Positions 27,442 to 60,500 of a stretch of DNA of 64,000 nucleotides are shown here, piece by piece. The first letter of the stretch is position 1; each line of letters begins with the position of its first letter. The notes beneath the pieces were generated by a model. It had not been told where the DNA came from. It saw only the letters and a program-made list of their open reading frames with translations, and made no database searches. The translations under genes were made by a program, and so were the position numbers. The stretch comes from Muricea muricata (lineage: Eukaryota > Cnidaria > Anthozoa > Malacalcyonacea > Plexauridae), in the NCBI GenBank assembly GCA_963855995.1, contig OY979717.1:51343140-51407139 (forward strand), written 5' to 3'.

Positions 27442-27649
27442 TACAGTGAGAAATGCAGAAACCAAAAACTCGGGCTTTTGAAAACTCCTCTACTGAGGAA
27501 TTTTAAAAATTTCCGTAAAGGTAAGGTCTGAGCCGTCGTGGTATGTACTTTATCTTATGCGACTGGAATGGATCCGCGTTACAATTCTATGACATATAGG
27601 CGCCAGTCCACATAGGTCAATAAACGATGTATCTATAAATACCATAACC

Positions 27650-30290
27650 AATATACACACTATAGGTTCTATAGGTACTATTATTATAGGTTTTATAGGT
27701 ACTATAGGTTTTATAGGTACTATAGGTTTTATAGGTACTATAGGTACTATAGGTTTTATAGGTGCTATAGGTTTTATAGGTTTTATAGGTGCTATAGGTT
27801 TTATAGGTACTATAGGTTTTATAGGTACTATAGGTTTTATAGGTTCTATAGGTACTATAGGTTTTATAGGTACTATAGGTTTTATAGGTTTTATAGGTGC
27901 TATAGGTTTTATAGGTACTATAGGTTTTATAGGTTCTATAGGTACTATAGGTTTTATAGGTACTATAGGTTTTATAGGTTTTATAGGTGCTATAGGTTTT
28001 ATAGGTACTATAGGTTTTATAGGTACTATAGGTTTTATAGGTTCTATAGGTACTATAGGTTTTATAGGTGCTATAGGTTTTATAGGTACTATGGGTACTA
28101 TAGGTTTTATAGGTACTATAGGTTTTATAGGTACTATAGGTTTTATAGGTACTATAGGTTTTATAGGTACTATAGGTTTTATAGGTTCTATAGGTACTAT
28201 AGGTTCTATAGGTACTATAGGTTTTATAGGTACTATACTGTAGGTACTATAGGTTTTATAGGTTTTATAGGTACTATAGGTACTATAGGTACTATAGGTT
28301 TTATAGGTACTATAGGTTTTATAGGTTCTATAGGTACTATAGGTTTTATAGGTACTATAGGTTTTATAGGTTTTATAGGTGCTATAGGTTTTATAGGTAC
28401 TATAGGTTTTATAGGTACTATAGGTTTTATAGGTTCTATAGGTACTATAGGTTTTATAGGTGCTATAGGTTTTATAGGTACTATGGGTACTATAGGTTTT
28501 ATAGGTACTATAGGTTTTATAGGTACTATAGGTTTTATAGGTACTATAGGTTTTATAGGTACTATAGGTTTTATAGGTTCTACAGGTACTATAGGTTCTA
28601 TAGGTACTATAGGTTTTATAGGTACTATAGGTACTATAGGTTTTATAGGTTTTATAGGTACTATAGGTACTATAGGTACTATAGGTTTTATAGGTACTAT
28701 AGGTTTTATAGGTACTATAGGTACTATAGGTTTTATAGGTACTATAGGTACTATAGGTACTATAGGTTTTATAGGTACTATAGGTACTATAGGTTTTATA
28801 GGTACTATAGGTACTATAGGTACTATAGGTTTTATAGGTACTATAGGTACTATAGGTTTTATAGGTACTATAGGTACTATAGGTACTATAGGTTTTATAG
28901 GTACTATAGGTACTATAGGTTTTATAGGTACTATAGGTACTATAGGTACTATAGGTTTTATAGGTACTATAGGTACTATAGGTTTTATAGGTACTATAGG
29001 TACTATAGGTTTTATAGGTACTATAGGTTTTATAGGTACTATAGGTACTATAGGTACTATAGGTTTTATAGGTACTATAGGTACTATATGTTTTATAGGT
29101 ACTATAGGTACTATAGGTTTTATAGGTACTATAGGTTTTATAGGTACTATAGCTTTTATAGGTACTATAGGTTTTATAGGTACTATAGGTTTTATAGGTT
29201 CTATAGGTACTATAGGTTTTATAGGTACTATAGGTTTTATAGGTTTTATAGGTGCTATAGGTTTTATAGGTACTATAGGTTTTATAGGTACTATAGGTTT
29301 TATAGGTTCTATAGGTTTTATAGGTACTATAGGTTTTATAGGTACTATAGGTTTTATAGGTGCTATAGGTTTTATAGGTAGTATAGGTTTTATAGGTGCT
29401 ACAGGTACTATAGGTTTTATAGGTACTATAGGTTTTATAGGTGCTATAGGTTTTATAGGTACTATAGGTTTTATAGGTACTACAGGTTTTATAGGTTCTA
29501 TAGGTACTATAGGTTTTATAGGTGCTATAGGTTTTATAGGTACTATGGGTACTATAGGTTTTATAGGTACTATAGGTTTTATAGGTACTATAGGTTTTAT
29601 AGGTACTATAGGTTTTATAGGTACTATAGGTTTTATAGGTTCTATAGGTACTATAGGTTCTATAGGTACTATAGGTTTTATAGGTACTATAGGTACTATA
29701 GGTTTTATAGGTTTTATAGGTACTATAGGTACTATAGGTACTATAGGTTTTATAGGTACTATAGGTTTTATAGGTTTTATAGGTGCTATAGGTTTTATAG
29801 GTACTATAGGTTTTATAGGTTTTATAGGTACTATAGGTTTTATAGGTGCTATAGGTTTTATAGGTTTTACAGGTTTTATAGGTGCTATAGGTTTTATAGG
29901 TGCTATAGGTTTTATAGGTACTATAGGTACTATAGGTTTTATAGGTACTATAGGTTTTATAGGTACTATGGGTTTTATAGGTACTATAGGTACTATAGGT
30001 TTTATAGGTACTATAGGTTTTATAGGTACTATAGGTTTTTTAGGTACTATAGGTTTTTTAGGTACTATAGGTACTATAGGTTTTATAGGTACTATAGGTT
30101 TTATAGGTACTATAGGTTTTTTAGGTACTATAGGTTTTTTAGGTACTATAGGTACTATAGGTTTCATAGGTACTATAGGTTTTATAGGTACTATAGGTTT
30201 TATAGGTACTATAGGTCTTATAGGTGCTATAGGTTTTATTGGTACTCTAGGTACTATTGGAACAATAGGTTTTATAGCCAATATATTTGC
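27650..30290. repeat. Left 9-bp satellite array (GGTNYTATA)n
   Basis: About 290 head-to-tail 9-bp units of four main types: GGTACTATA, GGTTTTATA, GGTTCTATA and GGTGCTATA. They are arranged in higher-order blocks, so motifs of 45-60 bp recur. Because 9 is a multiple of 3 and no unit type contains a stop, both strands stay open for hundreds of codons. The resulting G-F-I / K-P-I-V-P frames are a by-product and not evidence of protein. Near 30020-30150 some units change to GGTTTTTTA. Confidence 0.95.
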
Positions 30291-30468
30291 TAAATAGGTT
30301 AAGGTATTTGTTAAATAGGTTATTCCCCACTGATCAATACGCATACAGTCAACCTAGATCAATTAGTCTGCCTCGTTCCCAGAAAAGGCCCTGGGGGCGA
30401 GGATGGTATACAATCAATTTATGGTAATAAGTCAGGTAATAAGTTGTATAGCTTGCTATAAACAGTGT

Positions 30469-30510
30469 ATGTACTTCTCTTATGGGACTGGAATGGATCC
30501 GTGTGACCAG
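30469..30510 (+). repeat. Internal copy of the terminal repeat (left)
   Basis: GTATGTACTTCTCTTATGGG followed by ACTGGAATGGATCCGTG repeats the outer left terminus (27541 onward) in direct orientation with few mismatches. The inverted partner is at about 34460-34503. The transposase part is therefore bracketed by its own pair of ends inside the larger element. Confidence 0.85.
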
Positions 30511-30564
30511 TGCTAACATATACAGTAGTGATATCTGTTTAGTAGTGATATCTGTTTAGTAGTT

Positions 30565-30853
30565 ATTGCCGTTATGGCGTCATTCCTGTTATTGGTGTTA
30601 TTGCCGTTACTGGTGTTAATGGCGTTATTGGCGTTATTGCTGTTATTGGCGTTGTTGCCGTTATTGGTGTTGTTAGTGTTGTTGCCGTTATTGCTGTTAT
30701 TGGTGTTATTGCCGTTATTAGTGTTATTGCTGTTATTGCCGTTATTGCTGTTATTGCCGTTCTTGGTGTTATTAGAGTTATTGCCGTTCTCGCTGTTATT
30801 GGCGTTATTGCTGTTATTGGTGTTATTGCCGTTATTAGCGTTATTGCTGTTCG
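30565..30853. repeat. Second 9-bp array (GTTATTGNN)n, left arm
   Basis: About 32 units of GTTATTGCC, GTTATTGGT, GTTATTGCT and variants. The period is again 9 bp but the sequence is unrelated to the outer array. The leucine/valine-rich and Thr-Ile-rich frames over it are repeat artefacts. The inverted copy is at about 34133-34420. Confidence 0.92.
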
Positions 30854-31211
30854 AAATTTTCCGTGTTTACATCGAGTTATATCAACACGGCTCTTAGCCA
30901 ATCAGTGTTCAGGATTTACAAATGCTATATTATAAAATTGTACAACGGGCTTGTAAATAAAATTGTATTGAGTCGAATTGCTCATTTGTTTTTACTGTAC
31001 GACGGGCTTCAAGATGCTTCACTACATGCTTGTGCTGTCACAACTAATTACTCTTACTAAGGGAGTGTATATTGATGAAAAAGCCGAGAATATCCTGCAT
31101 CAATTGCTCGCAGAATATGAAAAGATCCTGCTGATGGTAAATACGATAACATCATATTAACTTCGAAAAGTTTTTATTTGGTGCCCGATTAGTCATTTTA
31201 CACTACCATTA

Positions 31212-32036
31212 ATGTGTCCCATCCATAATGTGCAACTAGTTTGTAAAAAATGGCAATCCGTGCTTTCTAAAGAAAATTATTTAAATCCACGTATGGTATA
31301 TGATACTGGTGGAAATGTTGTATTCATTCAGAGATATTACGAATGTGCTTCGTCTGGAAGTTCAACGTGGCTGAAACACACCTTTCTTTCAGCATCAAAA
31401 TCCATTATGGATGCTATTCCACGAAATTTGGCAAATAAGCTCCCAATTATTTTACATTACAAAAGTGCATTGACACATGACCTGCTTGATAATCTCTGGA
31501 CAAGCATTGAAATAGGACAAAATTTTGTTAAAATTACCGAGCGCTTGGCATCGTTAAACTACCGCTATTTTCAGCGAAGAAAGTTAATTCTTGGAGAGCA
31601 TACTAGTAATGCAGCTGACCTACAGTCGTTTTATGGAAATGTCTTATATTCTTTTCCTAGTAACGATAAACTGATGCACATATTCCTATGCCATTATGAA
31701 GAAACTAAACACATTTTTCATGCTGAAATGCAGAAGTTGACTGGCACCGTAATGTCATTTGACCACACTTTTAAAGTCAGCAAGCATATCGGAATTGTAA
31801 GAAATGACAATTCTTTTGTTAAACAATTTGATGGATGTTTTTTCGGGATGAATGGATATGGCGAGGTGGTTGCATGGCGTTTGACAAAGACAACGGGTTT
31901 TAAGGAAAATTACCATCTCCGATCACAGTATCCACAATACTGTGAAAACAGCAATTACCATCTCCGATCACAGTATCCACAATACTGTGAAAACAGCAAT
32001 TACCATCTCCGATCACAGTATCCACATCCAAATTGA
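31212..32036 (+). pseudogene. Truncated transposase copy in the left arm
   Basis: The first 232 residues match the right-arm transposase (MCPIHNVQLVCKKW... to KTTGFKE). At 31908/31909 the inverted-repeat homology ends, and the frame runs into reverse-strand sequence of the OTU-motif repeats (NYHLRSQYPQYCENS twice). It keeps the first catalytic Asp (SFDHTF, about residue 184) but lacks the second Asp, the Glu and everything after. It is a by-product of palindrome formation and cannot be active alone. Confidence 0.9.
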
Positions 32037-33774
32037 AAGAGTTTAAGTTTCTTTTTAGGGTTTCTTTGTTTTTGCCCTCCTCAACTGATGCAAATTTGTC
32101 TACATCTAAATTATTTATATTGTCGTAGTCAGAGCATCGTATTAGAGAGGCGTGCTCTTTAAAACCTGATAATAAGGGAAAGTCAAGGAGATTCAAGCTA
32201 CGTATTGCACATTGATTGTTTATCTTTTGAACAGTCTCGTACAGTTGCAAAGTTCTTTCGATGATATACATCACAGTTGAGCTGTTAAGCAAGTCATCAA
32301 GAACAGTAACGTGCAGAAAGGTGTTACCACACTGATCAGCATCTTGTTCAGTTGGTCCCATGGCAAGTCTTTCCTTGGTTTTATCTGCAAAAGGTGGTGG
32401 AATTTCTTTGGACGCGTCATTGTTCACTTTGAACGGCAGGGCTGTTGAAGAAGCGCAGTTATTAGAAATATCTTCTGAATATTCAGCTGGAATAATAGGT
32501 ACAACTCTCTGATTTTTTATGTGTTCGACACTTTTTTTCCTGTTATTCCATACGTATAATGCTAATGTGAGGCATGCAATAGCTAGTTCAGGGGAAATTG
32601 TATTAGCTCCAACCAACAGCGACTTTCGCAAATGTCGGTGTAAACGCTCATTTTTTTCTGTTCCCTCCCCCGGCAAAATTCCTGACAAGCATCCTTTATT
32701 TATGTGCCTTCTAAGATCATCAACCGATTTCAGCGTTTTTGCATTGAGTTGACCTTGCCAACGACAAAGGAGTTGTTCAAGATTTGCAATTATTACTTCA
32801 GGCTCTGGTGTGGTCATTTCTCTTTCTTCGCCAACGTCACCATCCACTCTAAATATCAAACCGAACTCTCTTGAAAATTGATTTTTTATTCCATCATGAT
32901 CTAATGTTTGTATAACGCGTTGACACGCGTGAAAAAGATCAAGTTTAATTTTTACGTTACCGCCGAAAACGTTTTGATAGCTATTGCGCATTTTACAACA
33001 GTCGTCGAGAATTATAACTTCCAAATTAATGCCGCTGTTTAGCATTCGTTCTTTTAAGTCAAACAATAAGTCTTCTATTTCCTTAAAACCCGTTGTCTTT
33101 GTCAAACGCCATGCAACCACCTCGCCATATCCATTCATCCCGAAAAAACATCCATCAAATTGTTTAACAAAAGAATTGTCATTTCTTACAATTCCGATAT
33201 GCTTGCTGACTTTAAAAGTGTGGTCAAATGACATTACGGTGCCAGTCAACTTCTGCATTTCAGCATGAAAAATGTGTTTAGTTTCTTCATAATGGCATAG
33301 GAATATGTGCATCAGTTTATCGTTACTAGGAAAAGAATATAAGACATTTCCATAAAACGACTGTAGGTCAGCTGCATTACTAGTATGCTCTCCAAGAATT
33401 AACTTTCTTCGCTGAAAATAGCGGTAGTTTAACGATGCCAAGCGCTCGGTAATTTTAACAAAATTTTGTCCTATTTCAATGCTTGTCCAGAGATTATCAA
33501 GCAGGTCATGTGTCAATGCACTTTTGTAATGTAAAATAATTGGGAGCTTATTTGCCAAATTTCGTGGAATAGCATCCATAATGGATTTTGATGCTGAAAG
33601 AAAGGTGTGTTTCAGCCACGTTGAACTTCCAGACGAAGCACATTCGTAATATCTCTGAATGAATACAACATTTCCACCAGTATCATATACCATACGTGGA
33701 TTTAAATAATTTTCTTTAGAAAGCACGGATTGCCATTTTTTACAAACTAGTTGCACATTATGGATGGGACACAT
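31900..33774 (-). CDS. DDE-type transposase with C-terminal OTU-like motif (transposon gene)
   Basis: This 624-residue frame would cut and join the element's ends (inferred role). Visible motifs: SFDHTFKV (Asp 184), VIILDDCCKMRN (Asp 257/258), KLDLFHACQR (Asp 279) and GEGTEKNERLHRHLRK (Glu 376), an RNase-H-like D-D-E layout. I recall similar proteins with DNCC, LDxFHAxQR and GTxxNExLHRH from cnidarian and sponge genomes, but cannot name the family firmly. The C-terminus carries IGDGNCCFHSI, the catalytic Cys loop of OTU deubiquitinases (D-G-N-C-x-F), repeated three times (15 aa, 45 bp). The frame then breaks at the palindrome junction, so the rest of an OTU domain with its His is missing. The start is the first Met; an upstream exon is possible (frame MLHYMLVLSQLITLTKG near 33826-33970). 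Confidence 0.85.
   Translation of the reverse strand: MCPIHNVQLVCKKWQSVLSKENYLNPRMVYDTGGNVVFIQRYYECASSGSSTWLKHTFLSASKSIMDAIPRNLANKLPIILHYKSALTHDLLDNLWTSIEIGQNFVKITERLASLNYRYFQRRKLILGEHTSNAADLQSFYGNVLYSFPSNDKLMHIFLCHYEETKHIFHAEMQKLTGTVMSFDHTFKVSKHIGIVRNDNSFVKQFDGCFFGMNGYGEVVAWRLTKTTGFKEIEDLLFDLKERMLNSGINLEVIILDDCCKMRNSYQNVFGGNVKIKLDLFHACQRVIQTLDHDGIKNQFSREFGLIFRVDGDVGEEREMTTPEPEVIIANLEQLLCRWQGQLNAKTLKSVDDLRRHINKGCLSGILPGEGTEKNERLHRHLRKSLLVGANTISPELAIACLTLALYVWNNRKKSVEHIKNQRVVPIIPAEYSEDISNNCASSTALPFKVNNDASKEIPPPFADKTKERLAMGPTEQDADQCGNTFLHVTVLDDLLNSSTVMYIIERTLQLYETVQKINNQCAIRSLNLLDFPLLSGFKEHASLIRCSDYDNINNLDVDKFASVEEGKNKETLKRNLNSFNLDVDTVIGDGNCCFHSIVDTVIGDGNCCFHSIVDTVIGDGNFP
31911..32031. repeat. 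45-bp tandem repeat encoding the OTU Cys loop
   Basis: The unit TACCATCTCCGATCACAGTA... through ACTGTGAAAACAGCAAT occurs twice in full plus a third partial copy. On the minus strand it encodes D-T-V-I-G-D-G-N-C-C-F-H-S-I-V per unit. It sits exactly beside the arm-loop junction of the 11-kb element. Confidence 0.92.
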
Positions 33775-34132
33775 TAATGGTAGTGTAAAATGACTAATCG
33801 GGCACCAAATAAAAACTTTTCGAAGTTAATATGATGTTATCGTATTTACCATCAGCAGGATCTTTTCATATTCTGCGAGCAATTGATGCAGGATATTCTC
33901 GGCTTTTTCATCAATATACACTCCCTTAGTAAGAGTAATTAGTTGTGACAGCACAAGCATGTAGTGAAGCATCTTGAAGCCCGTCGTACAGTAAAAACAA
34001 ATGAGCAATTCGACTCAATACAATTTTATTTACAAGCCCGTTGTACAATTTTATAATATAGCATTTGTAAATCCTGAACACTGATTGGCTAAGAGCCGTG
34101 TTGATATAACTCGATGTAAACACGGAAAATTT

Positions 34133-34420
34133 CGAACAGCAATAACGCTAATAACGGCAATAACACCAATAACAGCAATAACGCCAATAACAGCGAGAAC
34201 GGCAATAACTCTAATAACACCAAGAACGGCAATAACAGCAATAACGGCAATAACACTAATAACGGCAATAACACCAATAACAGCAATAACGGCAACAACA
34301 CTAACAACACCAATAACGGCAACAACGCCAATAACAGCAATAACGCCAATAACGCCAATAACGCCATTAACACCAGTAACGGCAATAACACCAATAACAG
34401 GAATGACGCCATAACGGCAA
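34133..34420. repeat. Second 9-bp array, right arm (inverted copy)
   Basis: The CAATAACGG/CAATAACAC/CAATAACAG units are the reverse complement of the 30565-30853 array. Copy order differs slightly by insertion or loss of single 9-bp units, so the arms have begun to drift in repeat number. Confidence 0.9.
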
Positions 34421-34459
34421 TAACTACTAAACAGATATCACTACTGTATATATTAGCAC

Positions 34460-34503
34460 TGGTCACACGGATCCATTCCAGTCCCATAAGAGAAGTACAT
34501 ACA
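34460..34503 (-). repeat. Internal copy of the terminal repeat (right)
   Basis: The reverse complement of the 30469 copy: CACGGATCCATTCCAGTCCC followed by ATAAGAGAAGTACATAC. It pairs with the left internal copy to bracket about 4.0 kb that contains both transposase copies. Confidence 0.85.
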
Positions 34504-34679
34504 CTGTTTATAGCAAGCTATACAACTTATTACCTGACTTATTACCATAAATTGATTGTATACCATCCTCGCCCCCAGGGCCTTTTCTGGGAACGAGGCA
34601 GACTAATTGATCTAGGTTGACTGTATGCGTATTGATCAGTGGGGAATAACCTATTTAACAAATACCTTAACCTATTTAG

Positions 34680-37600
34680 CAAATATATTGGCTATAAAAC
34701 CTATTGTTCCAATAGTACCTAGAGTACCAATAAAACCTATAGCACCTATAAGACCTATAGTACCTATAAAACCTATAGTACCTATAAAACCTATAGTACC
34801 TATGAAACCTATAGTATCTATAGTACCTAAAAAACCTATAGTACCTAAAAAACCTATAGTACCTATAAAACCTATAGTACCTATAAAACCTATAGTACCT
34901 ATAGTACCTAAAAAACCTATAGTACCTAAAAAACCTATAGTACCTATAAAACCTATAGTACCTATAAAACCTATAGTACCTATAGTACCTATAAAACCCA
35001 TAGTACCTATAAAACCTATAGTACCTATAAAACCTATAGTACCTATAGTACCTATAAAACCTATAGTACCTATAGTACCTATAAAACCCATAGTACCTAT
35101 AAAACCTATAGTACCTATAAAACCTATAGTACCTATAAAACCTATAGTACCTATAAAACCTATAGTACCTATAGTACCTATAAAACCTATAGTACCTATA
35201 AAACCTATAGTACCTATAAAACCTATAGCACCTATAAAACCTATAGCACCTATAAAACCTATAGTACCTATAAAACCTATAGTACCTATAAAACCTATAG
35301 TACCTATAGTACCTATAAAACCTATAGTACCTATAAAACCTATAGCACCTATAAAACCTATAGCACCTATAAAACCTATAGCACCTATAAAACCTATAGA
35401 ACCTATAAAACCTATAGTACCTATAAAACCTATAGTACCTATAAAACCTATAGCACCTATAAAACCTATAAAAGACTAAGGCAGACTAATTGATCTAGGT
35501 TGACTGTATGCGTATTGATCAGTGGGGAATAACCTATTTAACAAATACCTTAACCTATTTAGCAAATATATTGGCTATAAAACCTATTGTTCCAATAGTA
35601 CCTAGAGTACCAATAAAACCTATAGCACCTATAAGACCTATAGTACCTATAAAACCTATAGTACCTATAAAACCTATAGTACCTATGAAACCTATAGTAT
35701 CTATAGTACCTAAAAAACCTATAGTACCTAAAAAACCTATAGTACCTATAAAACCTATAGTACCTATAAAACCTATAGTACCTATAGTACCTAAAAAACC
35801 TATAGTACCTAAAAAACCTATAGTACCTATAAAACCTATAGTACCTATAAAACCTATAGTACCTATAGTACCTATAAAACCCATAGTACCTATAAAACCT
35901 ATAGTACCTATAAAACCTATAGTACCTATAGTACCTATAAAACCTATAGTACCTATAGTACCTATAAAACCCATAGTACCTATAAAACCTATAGTACCTA
36001 TAAAACCTATAGTACCTATAAAACCTATAGTACCTATAAAACCTATAGTACCTATAGTACCTATAAAACCTATAGTACCTATAAAACCTATAGTACCTAT
36101 AAAACCTATAGCACCTATAAAACCTATAGCACCTATAAAACCTATAGTACCTATAAAACCTATAGTACCTATAAAACCTATAGTACCTATAGTACCTATA
36201 AAACCTATAGTACCTATAAAACCTATAGCACCTATAAAACCTATAGCACCTATAAAACCTATAGCACCTATAAAACCTATAGAACCTATAAAACCTATAG
36301 TACCTATAAAACCTATAGTACCTATAAAACCTATAGCACCTATAAAACCTATAAAACCTATAGTGCCTATAAAACCTATAGCACCTATAAAACCTATAGC
36401 ACCTATAAAACCTATAGCACCTATAAAACCTATAGTACCTATAAAACCTATAGTACCTATAAAACCTATAGTACCTATAAAACCTATAGTACCTATAAAA
36501 CCTATAGTACCTATAGTACCTATAAAACCTATAGTACCTATAAAACCTATAGTACCTATAGTACCTATAGTACCTATAAAACCTATAGTACCTATAGTAC
36601 CTATAAAACCTATAGTACCTATAGTACCTATAAAACCTATAGTACCTATAGTACCTATAAAACCTATAGTACCTATAGTACCTATAAAACCTATAGTACC
36701 TATAGTACCTATAAAACCTATAGTACCTATAGTACCTATAAAACCTATAGTACCTATAGTACCTATAAAACCTATAGTACCTATAAAACCTATAGTACCT
36801 ATAGTACCTATAAAACCTATAGTACCTATAAAACCTATAGTACCTATAGTATCTATAAAACCTATAGTACCTATAAAACCTATAGTACCTATAGTACCTA
36901 TAAAACCTATAGTACCTATAAAACCTATAGTACCTATAGTACCTATAGTACCTATAAAACCTATAGTACCTATAAAACCTATAGTACCTATAGTACCTAT
37001 AAAACCTATAGTACCTATAGAACCTATAGTACCTATAGAACCTATAAAACCTATAGTACCTATAGTACCTATAAAACCTATAGTACCTATAAAACCTATA
37101 GTACCTATAAAACCTATAGTACCTATAAAACCTATAGTACCTATAGTACCTATAAAACCTATAGTACCTATAAAACCTATAGTACCTATAGAACCTATAA
37201 AACCTATAGTACCTATAAAACCTATAGTACCTATAAAACCTATAGCACCTATAAAACCTATAAAACCTATAGTACCTATAAAACCTATAGTACCTATAGA
37301 ACCTATAAAACCTATAGTACCTATAAAACCTATAGTACCTATAAAACCTATAGCACCTATAAAACCTATAGCACCTATAAAACCTATAGAACCTATAAAA
37401 CCTATAGAACCTATAAAACCTATAAAACCTATAGTACCTATAAAACCTATAGTACCTATAAAACCTATAGCACCTATAAAACCTATAGCACCTATAAAAC
37501 CTTTAAAACCTATAAAACCTATAGCACCTATAAAACCTATAGTACCTATAAAACCTATAAAACCTATAGTACCTATAAAACCTATAGCACCTATAAAACC

Positions 37601-38420
37601 TATAGCACCTATAAAACCTATAAAACCTATAGTACCTATAAAACCTATAGTACCTATAGAACCTATAAAACCTATAGTACCTATAAAACCTATAGTACCT
37701 ATAAAACCTATAGCACCTATAAAACCTATAGCACCTATAAAACCTATAGTACCTATAAAACCTATAGAACCTATAAAACCTATAGTACCTATAGTACCTA
37801 TAAAACCTATAGTACCTATAAAACCTATAGTACCTATAGTACCTATAAAACCTATAGTACCTATAGTACCTATAAAACCTATAGTACCTATAAAACCTAT
37901 AGTACTTATAAAACCTATAGTACCTATAAAACCTATAGTACCTATAGTACCTATAAAACCTATAGTACCTATAAAACCTATAGTACCTATAGAACCTATA
38001 AAACCTATAAAACCTATAGTACCTATAAAACCTACAGTACCTATAAAACCTATAGCACCTATAAAACCTATAAAACCTATAGTACCTATAAAACCTATAG
38101 TACCTATAGAACCTATAAAACCTATAGTACCTATAAAACCTATAGTACCTATAAAACCTATAGCACCTATAAAACCTATAAAACCTATAGCACCTATAAA
38201 ACCTATAGTACCTATAGTACCTATAAAACCTATAGTACCTATAAAACCTATAGTACCTATAAAACCTATAATACCTATAGAACCTATAAAACCTATAGTA
38301 CCTATAAAACCTATAGCACCTATAAATCCTATAGTACCTATAGTACCTATAAAACCTATAGTACCTATAAAACCTATAGTACCTATAAAACCTATAATAA
38401 TAGTACCTATAGAACCTATA
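34680..38420. repeat. Right 9-bp satellite array (CCTATARNA)n with 883-bp duplication
   Basis: About 400 units of CCTATAGTA, CCTATAAAA, CCTATAGCA and CCTATAGAA, the inverse of the left array but over 1 kb longer. A tandem duplication of 883 bp is evident: the unique leader (from GGCAGACTAATTGATCTAGG, with ATGCGTATTGATCAGTGGGG) at about 34600-34680 reappears at 35480-35563, followed by the same array order. The long open frames (284 and 1007 codons) are artefacts of the 9-bp period. Confidence 0.93.
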
Positions 38421-38694
38421 GTGTGTATATTGGTTATGGTATTTATAGATACATCGTTTATTGACCTATGTGGACTGGCGCCTATATGTCATGGAATTGT
38501 AACGCGGATCCATTCCAGTCGCATAAGATAAAGTACATACCGCCGTCGTTCTGCAACCGCTGATATGGTCAAATTCCTTAGCTTTGAACTTTCATGTTTG
38601 TGCATATATGTGACTGTTTACATGAAAATTTTGGGTATAAACTTTGCTGTTCTTTATTTGTCATAACCTTATATTGTTAATTTGGTAAGATTGA

Positions 38695-45931
<7,237 letters not shown>

Positions 45932-48070: not shown

Positions 48071-51000
48071 ATGCAAAGAAATATAGTAATTCCTGTCCTA
48101 TTTCACCATTTTATAATTTCTATTGGAGCGACAGTTACCGACCTTGTTGCAGATAATAATAACACAGTGGTCTCTCAAAGGTTTTATGTTGTCAAGAAAA
48201 CAGGTGAATTCAGTTTGTATCTATTATTTTTTGGACATAGTTCTAAAATAGAATTACTCAAGACCTCGCAAGCTATATGCAACGCTATATTGCAACTAAT
48301 TTTACTGGTGTCCCTAACACAGATCAAAATTGACAAATATGATTTAAAAAAATATATACCCGAGTATTTGTGTATACAAACTGAAAGCCGCAAAGTTAGA
48401 ACATGTTTTATGTTAAAAGGAACCTAAAAATAATGTATCAACTATTTATTATATTATACGTACAGTGCGTTAGGTTAAAAGATGTCAATTCCACTTTAGA
48501 GCCTGCGGTTGCTGTCGTTTAGCCTATCTCAAGCCTATCTTTCATTAAATACACATTAAGCATGACGCTGAGAGTTAGCAAGAGCTTAAACGAAGCGTAA
48601 TTGCATGATCTTAAGATAATGAAATAAGTTATGGTTCATGATATGAAAAACATTTAATTCCTGATTTCTTGAGATTTTTAGTGCTTTGCCAGTCTGCCGA
48701 AATATGAAGTGGACAAAATGGTGTTAATAGACATTAATAAGTACTGAAAGCATTCTAACTTCTTTTGTTTCGTTTCATAAAATAACTTGTTTCAATACTC
48801 AACATTATTTTACGCTTCATTTAACCCAGCATGAGTGTGTGTTTTTTAATTTAAGAGGAAACGGCAAAAAGCAAAAATAACATAAATTTGTGTATGTGAG
48901 CTTCTGGCGTAGCCATCGTTGGTAATTTGGCCGTTCATATATTCGTGTTTATAGACGATCGAAAGACAATCAATTTCAAAAGAAAATATTTGTGCAGAAC
49001 ATGAATGTATGAATATGGACACAAATAATAGCTCTCTTTCGCGACAGGCTTAAAACGTATTATTAACCTTTATTTATCTTACGCCGACGCAAATTCCGAA
49101 ACCGTAGACAGTCAGTCGCATCATTGATGGTTAGTCGCATCATTAATGGTCGGTGGCATTATTGTCTCGATCGTAGGCGTTTGTGTCTGATAAAACTAAT
49201 AGATTTTTCTTTTTAAAATTTTAAATAATCCAGTCCCTAACCTAAACCCTAAACCTAACCCTTACAAAAATCGTATAAAAGTGAAAAAATATAAGAAAAA
49301 AGGTTTGACGAACTTAAAAAATAAAATAGCCTCGCATGGGATTCGAACCCCTGCCCTATCTATTTCGAGTCGCAAGCTCATTCAGACGACTGAGTTAACA
49401 ACGAGCTTGCTGGAAACAATTTCTATTTATAGTGAAACTTCGTCTAATGGACACGAGAGGAATCTGGGAAGAAGATCAATGATGCGACTGACCATCAATG
49501 ATGCGACTGACTGTCTACGGTTTACGCCTATGAGGGGTAGAATGGGACAAAAATATTAATTGACAATGTCTCATGTTTTCGGGCGACGTCTCATGTTTTC
49601 GGGTGATGTCTCATGTTTTCGGGCAATTTCTTATGTTTTCGGGCGATGTCTCATGTTTTCGGGTGATGTCCAATGTTTTCGGGCAATGCCTCATGTTTTC
49701 GGGCAATGTCTCATGTTTTCGGGCAATGTCTCATGTTTTCGGGCAATGTCTCATGTTTTCGGACAATGTCTCGTGTTTTCGGGCAATATCGTGTGTGTAA
49801 TTATTCGGGTAAAAAACAGGTTACATCCGGGTCACTAATAATTTGGCGCCTTTTTCCACGAGGACGTCTAATTTCCAATATGGCGTAAGTTGTTTTGGAA
49901 ATGTGCTACATTGATTATTGCTTATCTAATGTATGGAGACTCATGACGTCAGACAAGTAAGTATCAACTTGAATTCATTAATTCTCTTTTAGTTCCTAAC
50001 AATCTTTGCAAGGGCGACAATCCGTTCCTAAAGGTGAGAAGGAGGCAGACCTCAAAGTAGGTAGAATGTGAAACAAACTTTCGTCGAAAATTGGGGGGAT
50101 AATTGGGTGTGGATACAAGCCGGACGCGGACAGCGGACGGTGAGCCGCGGACGGCGGACCGCGGACGGTGAACCGCGGAGAATTCGACGAGATGGAAATG
50201 GCGCACGTGGTTTTTTTTAAGCGCAATTAAAATGAACATTTCAGAAATTGGGGGCCAGCTTTTCCAGGAGTTTTATTTACGTTTTAAACTGTTCTCATAG
50301 TAACCGAGATTTAATCCACACAAAGGGTTTCTTCACAATAAGTCGCAATAACAGTGCAAAATAACCATGAATTTGTTACTCACAACAATGTCCATGCTGT
50401 TAATTAACTAGCGCCACCATGTATAAGTTACTGTCGCTCTTGCAGGAACGTATTAATCTACATGCAAAGTACTGAGTACAGTGCTTATTAAAGGACATTC
50501 TCGTATATTTACTGTCGCGGTAATACTATGAGAACAAAAAATTAACGAAAATGTACGTAAATGGTTGATCGTTGTTAGATTTTTTCCTCAGATAATGACT
50601 ATTTGTAAACTCATTGGTGTAACGAAAAACTGTAAATTGTTTCAACGTTTGTTAAATTATATCATAAAAACAAAAAATTCTTTCTGAGTTTCTCTACAGT
50701 TATAGAAACACTAGTCGTATGATAGTTTAATATAACTCAAAATAACGTGGTAAACTCACTCTTCCTTTTCCCACTCACATTGTCGCTCGTTCTATATCTT
50801 CTTTCTCTCGTCCTTCTCTCATTAGATATCAAATGTCTTTCGTTGTGTTCAAGATTTTATATTCTAGTCCAAATTCTCTGACAAAGAGATAGTGAGCTGG
50901 TGTCATCATATCTTTGATCACAGATGGTATTTGCACCTGTGATGCCATAAAATATGCTTGGTGTTTTTTCATACACCCGGCGTTTACATGGTAGTACACA

Positions 51001-54000
51001 TTTCCCGGTCTCTCTTGCAATTGTCCTGACCTGTCATAATAGGACCTTTTTGCATTTGAAACAATAACCAAATCATATGGTGGTTTTCCAATTTGGCCTC
51101 CTGGTTTCAGTGTCTGGCCACAACCAAAAATTGTTTTCACTTGGGGCGGACAATGTTTCAGGAAGTATAACATATATGTCCCAAAAAGTGGATTAGGTTA
51201 TCCAGGAGATAATGGTGCAAAAACGAGCACAACAGCGGCAAGACGGGCAACAGCAACAACGCTCAACAGCATTAACACCACAACAGCAAAAACAACAACA
51301 TCAACCACATGTACAACAGCGACAACAACAAATGTGGCAGCAGGAACAAGAGCAACAGAGACTTCGACAACAACAACAACAACAACAACTGCAACAACAA
51401 CAACAACAACAACTGCAGCAGCAACAACAACAGCAAAAAACAACCGCAACAACAACAGCAACAACAACAACAACATGTTCAATACCAACATCAGGTCCAA
51501 CAAACACTTTGTAGTGCGACCTCACAAAAATCAACAGTTGCTGCAATGTAGCACCGCCTAATACGCTCCATTATCTCCTGGATACCCTAATCCACTTTTT
51601 GGGACATATATGTTATACTTCGTGAAACATTGTCCGCCCCAAGTGAAAACATGTTTTGGTTGCGACCAGACACTGAACCAGGAGGCCAAATTGGAGAACC
51701 ACCGTATGATTTGGTTATTGTCTCAAATAAATGCAAAAAGGTCCTATTATGACAGGGCAGGACAATTGCAAGAGAGACCGGGAAATGTGTACTACCATGT
51801 AAAAACACGTGCATGAAAAAACACCAAGCATATTTTATGGCATCACAGGTGCAAATACCATATGTGATCAAAGATATGATGACACCAGCTCACTATCTCT
51901 TTGTCAGAGAATTTGGACTAGAAATATAAAATCTTGAACACAACGAAAGACATTTGATATCTAAGGAGAGAAGGACGAGAGAAAGAAGATATAGAACGAG
52001 CGAAAATGTGAGTGGGAAAAGGAAGAGTGAGTTTACCACGTTATTTTGAGTTATATTAAACTATCATACGACTAGTGTTTCTATAACTGTAAAGAAACTC
52101 AGAAAGAATTTTTTGCTTTTATGATATAATTTAATAAACGTTGAAACAATTTACAGTATTTCGTTACACCAATGAATTTACAAATTGTCATCATCTGAGG
52201 ATAAAATCTAGCAACGATCGACCATTTACGTACATTTTCGCAACTCTTTATCTAATATAATTCATTTTACATTTCATTAAACCAAGAATTGGCTTTTAAG
52301 TTCATCTCTTTTTATTTTTTTTTTGTGTCGTTAATTTTTCGTTCTCATGGTATTACCGCGACGGTAAATATACGAGAATGTCCTTTAATAAGCACTGTAC
52401 TCAGTACTTTGCATGTAGATTAATACGTTCCTGCAAGAGAGACAGTAACTTATACATGGTGGCGCTATAGTTAAAACAGCATGGACATTGTTGTGAGTAA
52501 CAAATTCATGGTTATTTTGCACTGTTATTGCGACTTATTGTGAAGAAACCCTTTGTGTGGATTAAATCTCGGTTACTATGAGAACAGTTTAAAACGTAAA
52601 TAAAACTCCTGGAAAAGCTGGCCCCCAATTTCTGAAATGTTCATTTTAATTGCGCTTAAAAAAACCCACGTGCGCCATTTCCATCTCGTCGAATTCTCCG
52701 CGGTTCTCCGTCCGCGGTCCGCGGTCCTCCGTCCGCCGTCAACCGTCCGCGTTCCCCTGTCTGCGTCCGGCTTATATCCACACCCAATTATCCCCCCAAT
52801 TTTCGATGAAAGTTTGTTTCACATTCTACCTACTTTGGGGTCTGCCTCCTTCTCACCTTTAGGAACGGATTGTCGCCCTTGCAAAGATTGTTAGGAGCTA
52901 AAAGAGAATTAATGAATTCAAGTTGATAGTTACTTGTCTGACGTCATGAGTCTCCATACATTAGATAAGCAATAATCAATGTAGCACATTTCCAAAACAA
53001 CTTACGCCATATTGGAAATTAGACGTCCTCGTGGAAAAAGGCGCCAAATTATCAGTGACCCGGATGTAACCTGTTTTTTTACCCAAATAATTACACACAC
53101 ACGATATTGCCCGAAAACACGAGACATTGTCCGAAAACATTAGACATCACCCGAAAACATGAGACATTGCCCGAAAACATGAGACATTGCCCGAAAACAC
53201 TGGACATCGCCCGAAAACATGAGACATCAATTGAGACATCGCCCGAAAACATGAGAACTTGCCCGAAAACATGAGACATCGCCCGAAAACATGAGACATT
53301 GTCAATTGATATTTTTGTCCTATTCCACCCCTCATAGCGAAGTGCAGTCGAATGCTTATTTGAATGCTAATTTCAGAAGTCGCATTTGTTCATAGTGTTA
53401 AATAATTCTATTCATGGTTGCGTCGTTCTCGGTTGCCAAATAAGAAAAATGTGCTGAAATGGGCATGCTTTTCTGGCTGTTCTTGACTGATGTTGTTCCG
53501 CGTTCCGCGTTTTATACTATGCCGAGGAATGAATTTGATGTGCACTAATTGTAAACTAATTGCATCATGATAAAAAATGTTCGACGCAATTCGAAAGACG
53601 TTGGGTAATAATAATTCCGTGTTCTCATATAAATCTTACTTCAAGCCCCAACCCAAACCCTAATCCTAACCAACGTTTGTCATGTTTTTGATTAGATCTA
53701 GGGCTTGGATTAAAACTTAATTTCGCGTACTGAGAACGCGGAATTATTACCAGACGTTCAGGACATTTTGACAAACCAACTCACTGGTACTGACGACATT
53801 TTGTACTAGGCTTGTTATATGAGATATGAACTACACAATATACTGAATATAGAATATATCTCGGTGCATGAAGTCATATGATAAAATTCAAATTACAAGT
53901 AAATCATACGATCAGTTGGAGTAACAATAATGGTGCAATTGACGACAGAGCAACGAGTATTTGTGGCAACACAATTTACCCTAATATCAAATGTAACCGG

Positions 54001-57578: not shown

Positions 57579-60500
57579 CTATTTTTTCAGATTTCCGACG
57601 ATGATTTTGTTAATTTCATCAAGTTGACTCGTCACTTTTTCTTTCAGTGGTCTGTAGTCACTTTCCACGCTCTTTGTAGCAATAACTACATTGTGTCAAG
57701 GCTGTAACGATGCATGATGATGAAAACAATAGCTACCACTAAAATCACAACAGTTAATTAAGAAATATAAAACATTTTCCGTGTTGATATACAGTTATAT
57801 CAACACGAGTGGAAATTGGAAAAACGAGAAATTGTGTGGAAACACGACGCCCGCAGGGCGGAGAAAATGTTTTATATTTCTTTTATAATATAGCACAAAG
57901 AACTTTAACAGAAGAGTGGCGGGAAATTTTCCGTGTTGACATAGAGTTATATCAACACGGCTCTTAGCCTATCAGCGTTTAGAATTTACAAATGCTATTT
58001 TATAATACTGATCATGACGACAAAAACAACGCATCCACGAGCACTGCATAGCGAGAACGACAATACCATTATATAACAAGACTACCACCAACGATGGCAA
58101 ACAGGAAAATATAAGCAAACATAGTGCACTAATGACGGATAATCGGCATCAGGGCAATTTTTGCCTTATTGGTAGACAGTGCGTTTCGAAGTGTTATATG
58201 TATTTCCAAATTGTCCAAAACTGATTGTTGAGAAAATTTACTCAGCAAAAATTACGTAAACCGCGCGGTGAAGCCCGTACGACGAGGAATTGACTGAAAT
58301 ATGTACCTTCGGATAATGTTTGCCAAAAGTCTATTTAGAGTCATATCTACAGTAAGTCTGTTAGTGGTCTGTTACAGGCTTTAATAAGAAATGTCTATAT
58401 AGACAAACTTTAAGTTCTTCAGTAAAATCAGATGATCAAAAATGAATGACGTAACTTTTCAATCAACTGATCATATTATCAAAAATCTGGTAAGACTGAT
58501 GCATGAATAATTATAGTAAACGGTACTTTGCATGGTCGATCAATAAACACAACAACACCATTAACAAAATATTGACAATAATTGGACAAAGGATACACTC
58601 TTTCATCACAAAGTTATTCTGTTCAAGATGCTGCCACTTTCGTTCCAGATTTGAAAGCTGAAAGATATTGAAACATTGTATACAACGTGCTAAATTAAAG
58701 AAATCACATCATTTTTTTGTCGCTGCATGGTCTTAAAACTATGCTTTACACAAACTTTGCCTTCACAAAAATGAAACAAAAATTGATGTAGAGGGTAATT
58801 AAAGGACATAGAGACGTCTGTGTAGCAAATGTCGCCCATTCCAAGTGACTTTTTTTATAAATTTTAGTGCTACATGTATTCTACGATTTTACTGTATCCA
58901 TTGTCATTAGGCACCTTTTCTCCAGGGTTGTTTCATGTTTTAGAGAAAGATGCAAGTCAACTACGAAAAATCTATATTTAACATGTACAGTTAAGGTGTG
59001 TTTTAACAAAAATGTTTAGCCATTTTACAACTTTATGAATTATGACTAAATTTACCTGAGAGTAAGTTTCATTTTCATTCAGTTTGTTCTTCAAAGCCTC
59101 GTATTTTGTACTCATGCTAAGAACACCTTTGAAAAAATACAATAATGTCAAACCTCTTAATCTACTCGTGAATAGCTAAAAACCTTCAACGTACGTCCTT
59201 TTAATGACTCCTTTCTTGACTCCAGTGCTTCTTGTTCCTCATTCAATTGCTGCAAAAATAGAAATCACAAACCCGAATATCAAGCGATTGATGTGTATTG
59301 TTTCATGTACAGTATATATACCTGTAGGTTCACTAGCTTACAAAGGTTGTAAATGCATGATCACTTATATGCACAAGTACTTGGCTAACATTTGCATACA
59401 CGCTGGTCTTTACACGTTTGCATGAATTAAATTCTAGGTTGCATGCCTGTATATTTTAGTTTTTTGCAGGTAGCCAAAAAATTGCAGTTAGCCATGTTTG
59501 TTTCACACAAACTTGTCCACTTTGCTTAAATTAGTCAAACCACACAACACTTAGTTGTAACCAAGGATTTCAGTTAGCTTCAGTCAAATGCAGGTAGTAC
59601 TGCTACTTAGGATTAACTAGGGTTAAGCCAATCGATTCATGAACAACCGGCCCCCAAAACCTTACATTTACCGCTCCAGATAACAGTAATGAAGACACAA
59701 GTGAAAGTTAACAGCAGGACTAAAACACTCACCACTCTCCTGTCCTCAGCGTTTTCTTTGAGCGAGTCCAAGTCATTAAACGTCACTAATTCCTACACAA
59801 CAAAAATTGTTCAAATTTTCACATCTATAGGATGTCCCAAAAAAGCGGAACCATTAAGAAATTAGTTGTGTATTCTTTACAAATTCCTAATTATTCTTCA
59901 TCATTTTGAACTATTAACATGTAAATGGTTCCGCTTTTTTGCGACATCCTGTCTACCTATCTTGTGGAAATTCTTGAAGTACTGAAAGGCATATAGAGCA
60001 GAGGACAAAAATACTATCATATTTTTATGTACCAAATCTTACATAAAAAAATTAAACTGGGGCAGGACTTTTAAAAGGTAAGTAAACTAGACTTTTCAGT
60101 AGATTTTCTTTTTGGCTTATCGATAAGAATTTTTAAAGTAACTGTAATATCTCTGTTAAATTTTGATAACATGCAGCTATGTTTTTTAAAAAAATAATGA
60201 ACAAAGAATGACAAAAACACTAGCTATAAAAAATCCATGTTACATACACAGAAGAGTTACTTTCCTCAAGAAGTAAGTAGCAAATATGATCAAAGAAATC
60301 CAACTGGATGTTTATGACTGTGTATACTTATATGCGTAAATTGTGAGGTGTAGAAAAAAAAATTTCGTTGGGATTTAACTAATCGACAGTTATTATACCC
60401 TGCTTGTGACGTGATAAAATAGACCTAATTATAAAACAAGATGGCGGATAACTAGTGTCATTCTTCCTTCAATAAACAATCAAAACATGCTAGAAAAATT

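What the first reader, a model, noticed from the sequence alone, without database searches (positions are those of the whole stretch)
27540..38541. An 11-kb palindromic transposon with satellite arms and an intact 8-bp target duplication
Seen: GCCGTCGT on both sides, matching ends starting GGTATGTACTTT, inner mirror symmetry about 32493, and arms built of hundreds of 9-bp units around a DDE-type gene. Known: 8-bp duplications occur in hAT, P and KDZ/Zisupton-like families. Inference: a very large, recently inserted element whose subterminal satellite may be a transposase-binding platform. I do not know a described element with this plan.
Basis: partly seen in the sequence, partly recalled or inferred. 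Interest (0 to 1): 0.92.

Follow-up and report, generated by a model that had tools for sequence, protein, structure and literature searches.

The report
Self-homogenising palindromic DNA transposon family
This is one damaged copy of a family of large jumping genes in a probable cnidarian genome, most of them built as a palindrome with two facing copies of the same transposase gene, whose two halves appear to swap and overwrite each other's sequence.

Summary
Observation confirmed. Element 27540-38541 has 121-bp ends (120 of 121 identical), an intact 8-bp target duplication, 9-bp-unit arrays and near-identical inverted arms. The window's own genome (453 Mb) holds relatives: 21 of 23 tested end pairs have perfect 8-bp duplications. 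Nine others read whole carry two convergent transposase gene copies around the same ~146-bp asymmetric centre; twelve more have facing gene matches, ten of them checked for the centre word (10 of 10). One pair has no listed gene match. The window copy lost about 1 kb of one arm beside the centre. The palindrome probably arose once and spread as a unit.

In a tree of 20 arms, arms of the same copy are sisters in 8 of 10 copies (window and C15_8886 share one clade). Yet 14 of 20 copies keep two end alleles, and the centre lies either way round relative to them (8 against 6). So the arms recombine within copies.

A relative's model has a Mutator/IS256-type fold plus an OTU domain, lost in the ten palindromes read; KDZ, hAT or P is not supported. 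A single-armed full-length version exists. The inner "second end" of each arm is the real end of 27-60 kb giant elements. The plan is foldback-like: a new variant of a known kind.

The parts
27532..27539 (.). left copy of the 8-bp target site duplication GCCGTCGT
38542..38549 (.). right copy of the 8-bp target site duplication
27540..27658 (+). outer end T1 (GGTATGTACTTTATCTTATGCGACTGG...), position 49 = T
   Evidence: genome copies
38423..38541 (-). outer end T1, position 49 = C
27659..30277 (+). outer array 1, 9-bp units TACTATAGG/TTTTATAGG, 2.6 kb
34692..38422 (-). outer array 1 of the other arm, 3.7 kb, including an exact ~877-bp tandem duplication (34601-35472 = 35479-36355) that reaches into the inner block
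30278..30523 (+). inner unique block holding the internal end T2 (from 30467), which is the true end of a separate set of 27-60 kb elements
34445..34691 (-). inner unique block of the other arm, with T2 (34459-34502)
30562..30851 (+). array 2, 9-bp units GTTATTGCC/GTTATTGGT
   Evidence: same array type next to the T2 ends of element C2_58199
34140..34424 (-). array 2 of the other arm
30853..31908 (+). left arm (B): gene 5' region and truncated first part of the transposase gene (open from 31161); identical to 33078-34133 reversed
   Evidence: 1056 of 1056
31903..33825 (-). transposase ORF (641 codons between stops, first Met at 33774): weak DUF6729 match, DDE core, first residues of an OTU domain; OTU otherwise lost
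31908..32026 (.). remnant of the palindrome centre: 45-bp unit x2.6 (OTU start; also present three times in copy C15_8886), ending at the junction of this copy's deletion (1-bp microhomology)

Best explanation
The element is a non-autonomous, palindromic (foldback-type) member of a Mutator/IS256-like transposon family. A single-armed progenitor (end T1, array 1, internal end T2, array 2, full-length transposase gene) was once copied into an inverted duplication that joined two arms tail to tail inside the OTU part of the gene, leaving a ~146-bp asymmetric loop with AT-rich filler (single origin inferred from the shared loop and filler). This palindrome then transposed as a unit, making 8-bp duplications (shown by copies with duplications). 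Its two arms recombine within each copy: conversion keeps the inner arms alike and crossover turns the centre round relative to the outer ends, while ends and arrays stay distinct (the pattern is shown; the recombination itself is inferred). The palindromes read lack the OTU domain and their genes show no sign of purifying selection, so a transposase made elsewhere, from the single-armed full-length copy or from the giant T2-ended elements, probably moves them in trans (inferred). The arrays may add transposase-binding sites, as shown for Galileo (analogy only). The window copy later lost about 1 kb of its left arm next to the centre.
Against: With the progenitor as outgroup the arms of C3_55307 are not sisters (the B arm lies next to the progenitor), window and C15_8886 remain one unresolved clade, and two pairs have support of only 78 and 83. 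The other array pairing is not clear-cut: window A scores 121 with C15 B and 122 with C15 A, although its longest identical run (43 units) is with C15 B. C4_12485 has no target duplication and C3_9167 has 7 of 8. The T1-ended pair C3_17278 has a perfect duplication but no gene match in the list (a lower bound), so not every T1 element need be such a palindrome. Only ten elements were read whole. No transposition, binding or excision was measured. Pfam matches to Mutator-type domains are weak.
Confidence: 0.83

Rival explanations
1. The palindrome is rebuilt at every transposition: only one arm is carried over and folded back, so arms start identical in each new copy.
For: Explains why both arms of a copy share private bases and why C15_8886 (0 of 2351) and C3_26401 (0 of 2195) have identical arms.
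Against: 14 of 20 copies keep two different end alleles, T and C, and window B and C15 A share an array that differs from the array of the other arm in each copy, so both outer arms pass through transposition.
Confidence: 0.08
2. Each palindrome formed independently from single-armed progenitors at the same spot, and arms have not recombined.
For: A single-armed full-length copy exists; independent births would make arms sisters.
Against: The same loop with the same AT-rich filler, absent from the progenitor, is in 9 of 9 copies read whole (differing mainly in TA-repeat length) and in 9 of 10 sampled centres (the tenth is rearranged).
Confidence: 0.05
3. The inverted duplication is an assembly artefact.
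For: Long palindromes and satellites are hard to assemble; reads were not available.
Against: The plan recurs at other loci with their own flanks, arrays of unequal length (1.6-14 kb, the longest with nested insertions), an asymmetric loop and perfect target duplications.
Confidence: 0.03
4. It is a KDZ (Zisupton-like), hAT or P element.
For: 8-bp duplications also occur there (Zisupton and hAT: PMC12730594 passages; P recalled); related proteins carry a CXC-type cysteine match and an OTU domain.
Against: 55 family members gave matches to DDE_Tnp_ISL3 (12), MULE (7) and Transposase_mut (4) but none named KDZ, hAT or P among the 24 families listed at E up to 0.1; the best solved-structure match is the IS256-family ISCth4 transposase.
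Confidence: 0.05

Closest known systems
Tm1, Mutator/foldback family of root-knot nematodes (PMC3169594; passages read)
   Same: Composite terminal inverted repeats made largely of short tandem units (13-15 bp) that differ in number between the two ends, target duplications (9 bp), a Mutator-type transposase in one member, many non-autonomous derivatives.
   Different: About 2.6 kb at most, one transposase gene, Phantom-type transposase with FLYWCH domain; no palindrome with two gene copies and no nested second end in the passages read.
Galileo of Drosophila (PMC3688188 abstract; PMC3573991 passages read)
   Same: Long repetitive inverted ends; tandem repeats in the ends hold binding sites for the transposase THAP domain; ends can grow by copying internal sequence to the other side.
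   Different: P superfamily; longest ends about 1.26 kb in the D. mojavensis passages; no whole-element palindrome with arm-to-arm homogenisation in what I read.
MuDR-6_HM clade of Mutator elements in Cnidaria (PMC6446971; table passage read)
   Same: Cnidarian Mutator-like elements with an ovarian tumour (OTU) domain behind the transposase.
ISCth4, IS256 family (PMC7780238; passages read)
   Same: Best solved fold for residues 53-493 of a full-length relative; most ISCth4 copies have 8-bp duplications; the paper states that IS256 transposases resemble those of Mutator-like elements.
   [quoted passage not shown] 31-bp ends.
Tetris, foldback of Drosophila virilis (PMC4079207; passages read)
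   Same: Foldback ends with tandem repeats, 8-10 bp duplications; its authors state that most foldbacks seem to belong to Mutator.
   Different: About 220-bp repeats, no apparent coding capacity.

Membership tests
Foldback-type transposon (structural class) | long terminal inverted repeats | tested here: met
   arms of several kb in 10 of 10 elements read whole
Foldback-type transposon (structural class) | tandem short repeats inside the inverted repeats, number differing between the ends | tested here: met
   282 against 393 parsed units in the window; lengths 1.6-14 kb over 20 arms
Foldback-type transposon (structural class) | target site duplications | tested here: met
   21 of 23 perfect
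Foldback-type transposon (structural class) | snap-back of denatured strands | not tested
   expected from sequence only
Mutator (MULE) superfamily | DDE catalytic domain of IS256/Mutator type | tested here: met
Mutator (MULE) superfamily | Pfam MULE or Transposase_mut match | tested here: inconclusive
   7 and 4 of 55 members at E up to 0.1, best E 0.0047 and 0.027; the one such match whose score was shown was below its cut-off
Mutator (MULE) superfamily | 8-11 bp target duplication | tested here: met
   8 bp; range from PMC6446971 passage
Mutator (MULE) superfamily | position inside the superfamily in a tree of catalytic domains | not tested
   no reference set built
KDZ (Kyakuja-Dileera-Zisupton) | KDZ-type transposase | tested here: inconclusive
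   no KDZ-named family among the 24 listed for 55 members; whether the library holds one was not checked
KDZ (Kyakuja-Dileera-Zisupton) | 8-bp duplication (Zisupton) | tested here: met
   length for Zisupton from PMC12730594 passages
hAT or P | hAT- or P-type transposase | tested here: inconclusive
   no such family among the 24 listed; the structural list does not exclude it

The most novel reading that the evidence does not exclude
A transposon lineage lives as a self-homogenising palindrome: its two arms, each with a gene copy, convert one another and turn the centre round while the outer ends and arrays stay apart, and it has grown a new pair of ends outside an older pair still shared with 27-60 kb giant elements, so that its mobility is borrowed from that larger family. 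This would be a mobile counterpart of recombining sex-chromosome palindromes.
Probability: 0.6. Interest if true: 0.85.

Novelty: new variant of a known kind. Interest (0 to 1): 0.74.

Why it matters
Long palindromes are usually seen as unstable (general knowledge). Here a family of 7-35 kb two-ended elements, 21 of 23 with two facing gene copies and one more (the window) with a damaged second copy, has spread with clean target duplications and leaves many copies in which arm-to-arm recombination can be read base by base. That makes the question of how palindromes recombine and persist testable outside sex chromosomes. The same genome suggests how a foldback forms from a coding element and how a transposon can gain a second, outer pair of ends, and it holds giant Mutator-like elements with intact target duplications.

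Tried and rejected
Terminus pattern in viral and prokaryote contig collections: no match. A protein search with a reading frame running out of the end through the array: 12 candidates, none at E up to 10. An end and duplication search for the second inverted-array region at 49.1-53.3 kb found nothing. My first reading, that the 45-bp repeat and the 1-bp microhomology marked the birth of the palindrome, was dropped: the 45-bp triplication is also in C15_8886 and the other copies have the centre, so the window junction is a later deletion. Regeneration of whole arms at each jump and independent birth of each palindrome were considered and rejected (see rivals). A genome-wide count of the loop junction did not complete. 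The pair 44708677/44727551 on C3 looked like an element without duplication; I read its ends as those of two nested elements. Two literature searches aimed at palindromic or giant Mutator elements listed 8 of 12 and 8 of 16 papers; no title or abstract start there describes such a family, and the library holds open-licence papers only.

Full report
The observation. The element runs from 27540 to 38541 (11,002 bp) between two copies of GCCGTCGT. Its ends (121 bp) differ at one base. From the outside in, each arm has: end T1 (119 bp); array 1 of 9-bp units (2.6 kb left, 3.7 kb right); a 246-247-bp block that contains a second, diverged end, T2; array 2 of a different 9-bp unit; and the 5' part of a transposase gene. 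Outside the arrays the two arms differ at 2 bases; in and beside array 2 by one 17-bp and two 9-bp units. The outer arrays of the two arms are related along their length (unit alignment score 116 after leaving out one duplicate block; 12 order-1 shuffles gave 38-59) but differ by many unit insertions and deletions.

The family. The window lies in a 453-Mb genome. The 32-base T1 end pattern with up to 3 mismatches gives 54 forward and 58 reverse matches, against none for the reversed control; the list of places was cut and includes T2 ends. Of 23 T1 end pairs tested, 21 have perfect 8-bp duplications (window; 9 of 9; 4 of 5; 7 of 8); C3_9167 has 7 of 8 bases and C4_12485 none. The mixed pair 44708677/44727551 on C3 is left out of this count because I read its ends as belonging to two elements. 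Sizes of these pairs are 7.2-35 kb (coordinates). Some T1 ends stayed unpaired (C12 3062087, C14 7296349).

The family is a palindrome. In all 9 other elements fetched whole, module order is T1, array 1, T2 block, array 2, gene forward, short centre, gene reverse, and so on mirrored. C3_57787 has nested insertions in one gene copy, C3_12304 in one array, and C3_26401 lacks about 141 bp of one arm at the centre. The protein census places facing forward and reverse gene matches in 12 further T1 pairs (C2_7771, C2_9212, C2_50021, C3_9167, C4_10152, C4_12485, C5_5972, C9_9473, C9_10770, C10_1245, C14_5851, C16_2296); the remaining pair, C3_17278, has no listed match. The centre is the same asymmetric loop of about 146 bp (longer in C15_8886 and C2_67499 through internal duplication), which starts as OTU coding sequence and ends in AT-rich filler. 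A 34-base word of the loop was found without mismatch in 10 of 10 further elements sampled at the centre; the filler followed by the inverted arm start is there in 9 of the 10 (two of them diverge soon after CATCCAAATTGAA), and C5_5972 is rearranged. Compared with the full-length gene, the loop departs after GACTCCGCG into filler and then the inverted arm. One shared filler points to one origin. The window copy lacks about 1 kb of its left arm next to the centre, at a junction with 1 bp of microhomology.

The arms recombine. Arm A is the arm whose gene reads into the OTU start of the loop. If arms never exchanged, A arms of different copies should be closer to each other than to B arms. In the unrooted FastTree of 20 arms (2351 columns without array 2), own partners are sisters in 8 of 10 copies; window and C15_8886 share one clade because they are nearly identical. 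Mean distance is 0.0020 within copies, 0.00465 between copies for the same arm class and 0.00468 for different classes; 0 of 10,000 random re-pairings is as small as observed. Private bases: 19 occur in both arms of one copy, 45 in one arm only, 6 in several copies, none of these confined to one arm class. Rooted with the progenitor, seven pairs are sisters with support 78-99, window and C15_8886 form one clade, and C3_55307 is an exception whose B arm lies near the progenitor.

The ends do not follow the inner arms. Base 49 of T1 is T at one end and C at the other in 14 of 20 copies, CC in 4 and TT in 2; among the 14, arm A carries C in 8 and T in 6. The window and C15_8886 have nearly identical inner arms (0 or 1 difference) but opposite linkage of centre and ends, and among the 20 arrays a rare 18-base unit occurs only in window B (3 times) and C15 A (4 times). 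The array evidence is clear for window B-C15 A (score 157; 84 for window B-C15 B) and weak for window A (121 and 122). The simplest reading is crossover between arms, which turns the centre, plus conversion inside. Whole-arm regeneration at each jump would have erased the T/C difference.

Progenitor and driver. A protein search of the genome gave 72 matches (69 of 166 candidates scored). Two, on C3 and C14, have an 846-aa open frame and match the window protein over residues 1-615; the C3 protein is identical at 612 of 615. The C3 locus, read directly, has T1, a 1.35-kb array 1, T2, array 2 and one gene with a whole OTU domain, with a cysteine-rich (CXC-like by eye) frame downstream. No second T1 end was seen there; the unit sits inside a giant element in place of about 4.9 kb of it. 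The C14 locus was not read beyond its T1 end. Variable sites in the palindrome genes fall 21, 12 and 12 at codon positions 1, 2 and 3 of 584, 583 and 583, no sign of purifying selection. So the palindromes are probably moved in trans.

The giants. T2, internal in the palindrome arms, is the true end of another set. Of 9 T2-ended pairs, 6 have perfect 8-bp duplications (27.3, 28.6, 33.7, 35.9, 39.9 and 60.2 kb), one 7 of 8, two none (the 35.9-kb pair read from the flanks L055 and L076). Two were read in full: 27,347 and 28,604 bp, the same 82-bp ends, inverted subterminal arrays of an 18-bp unit, 20,154 of 20,935 interior bases aligned in collinear blocks of 95-99.6% identity, different duplications. 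The first carries a 1012-codon frame with weak OTU-type and CXC matches below cut-off, 26% identical to the palindrome protein over 648 positions, and a DUF3987 frame (E 3e-20), which the second also has; there the transposase frame is shorter (879 codons). A smaller T2-ended element (C2_58199) has 3.1-kb arrays of the array-2 type and a stretch 66% similar to the DUF3987 region, but no perfect duplication and no palindrome. T1- and T2-ended elements hit the same site of one repeat (C9_9473 and C3_55812, joined flanks 97.8% identical over 92 bases), and three T1 elements hit one position of another repeat. This fits a shared or very similar integration machinery, which is inference.

Place among known things. 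Foldback elements with tandem repeats in their ends are known, and Tm1 (PMC3169594, passages) joins this plan with a Mutator transposase. Galileo gives the precedent for transposase-binding sites in such repeats (PMC3688188, abstract) and for ends growing by copying internal sequence to the other side (PMC3573991, passages). Mutator elements of Cnidaria with an OTU domain are listed (MuDR-6_HM, PMC6446971, passages), and OTU domains occur in other cut-and-paste transposases (Ginger1, PMC2836005, passages). In the capped listings of ten literature searches and the passages read I did not meet a transposon family that spreads as a whole palindrome with two facing gene copies and recombining arms; only one search was aimed at this. 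I file it as a new variant of a known kind.

Noticed in passing
49528-53337: Another inverted-array region: arms about 94% identical with 20-bp units (CAATGTCTCATGTTTTCGGG) at both sides; no target duplication found.
   Followed up: partly
456-1634: 505-bp inverted repeats, 99.2% identical, with a short spacer.
   Followed up: partly
42310-44090: About 540-bp inverted repeats, 89.8% identical; only self-complementary 6-bp matches at the edges.
   Followed up: partly
30853-30935 and 57923-58005: An 83-bp stretch upstream of the transposase frame recurs 91.6% identical elsewhere in the window.
   Followed up: no
L079-L081, L082-L084: Giant 27-29 kb T2-ended elements with a DUF3987 frame; the first one's transposase frame begins with a hydrophobic, signal-like stretch (by eye), as do several relatives from the protein search.
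   Followed up: partly
C15_8886, C9_10770, C16_2296 flanks (L009, L029, L051): Three insertions at the same position of one repeat, with duplications AGCACGGT, AGCACGGT and AGCACGTT; suggests target preference.
   Followed up: partly
34601-36355: Exact ~877-bp tandem duplication within the right arm (array 1 plus part of the inner block); recent, or possibly an assembly effect.
   Followed up: no
G000 C3:17278236-17295968: A T1-type end pair with a perfect 8-bp duplication but no listed transposase match; content not read.
   Followed up: no
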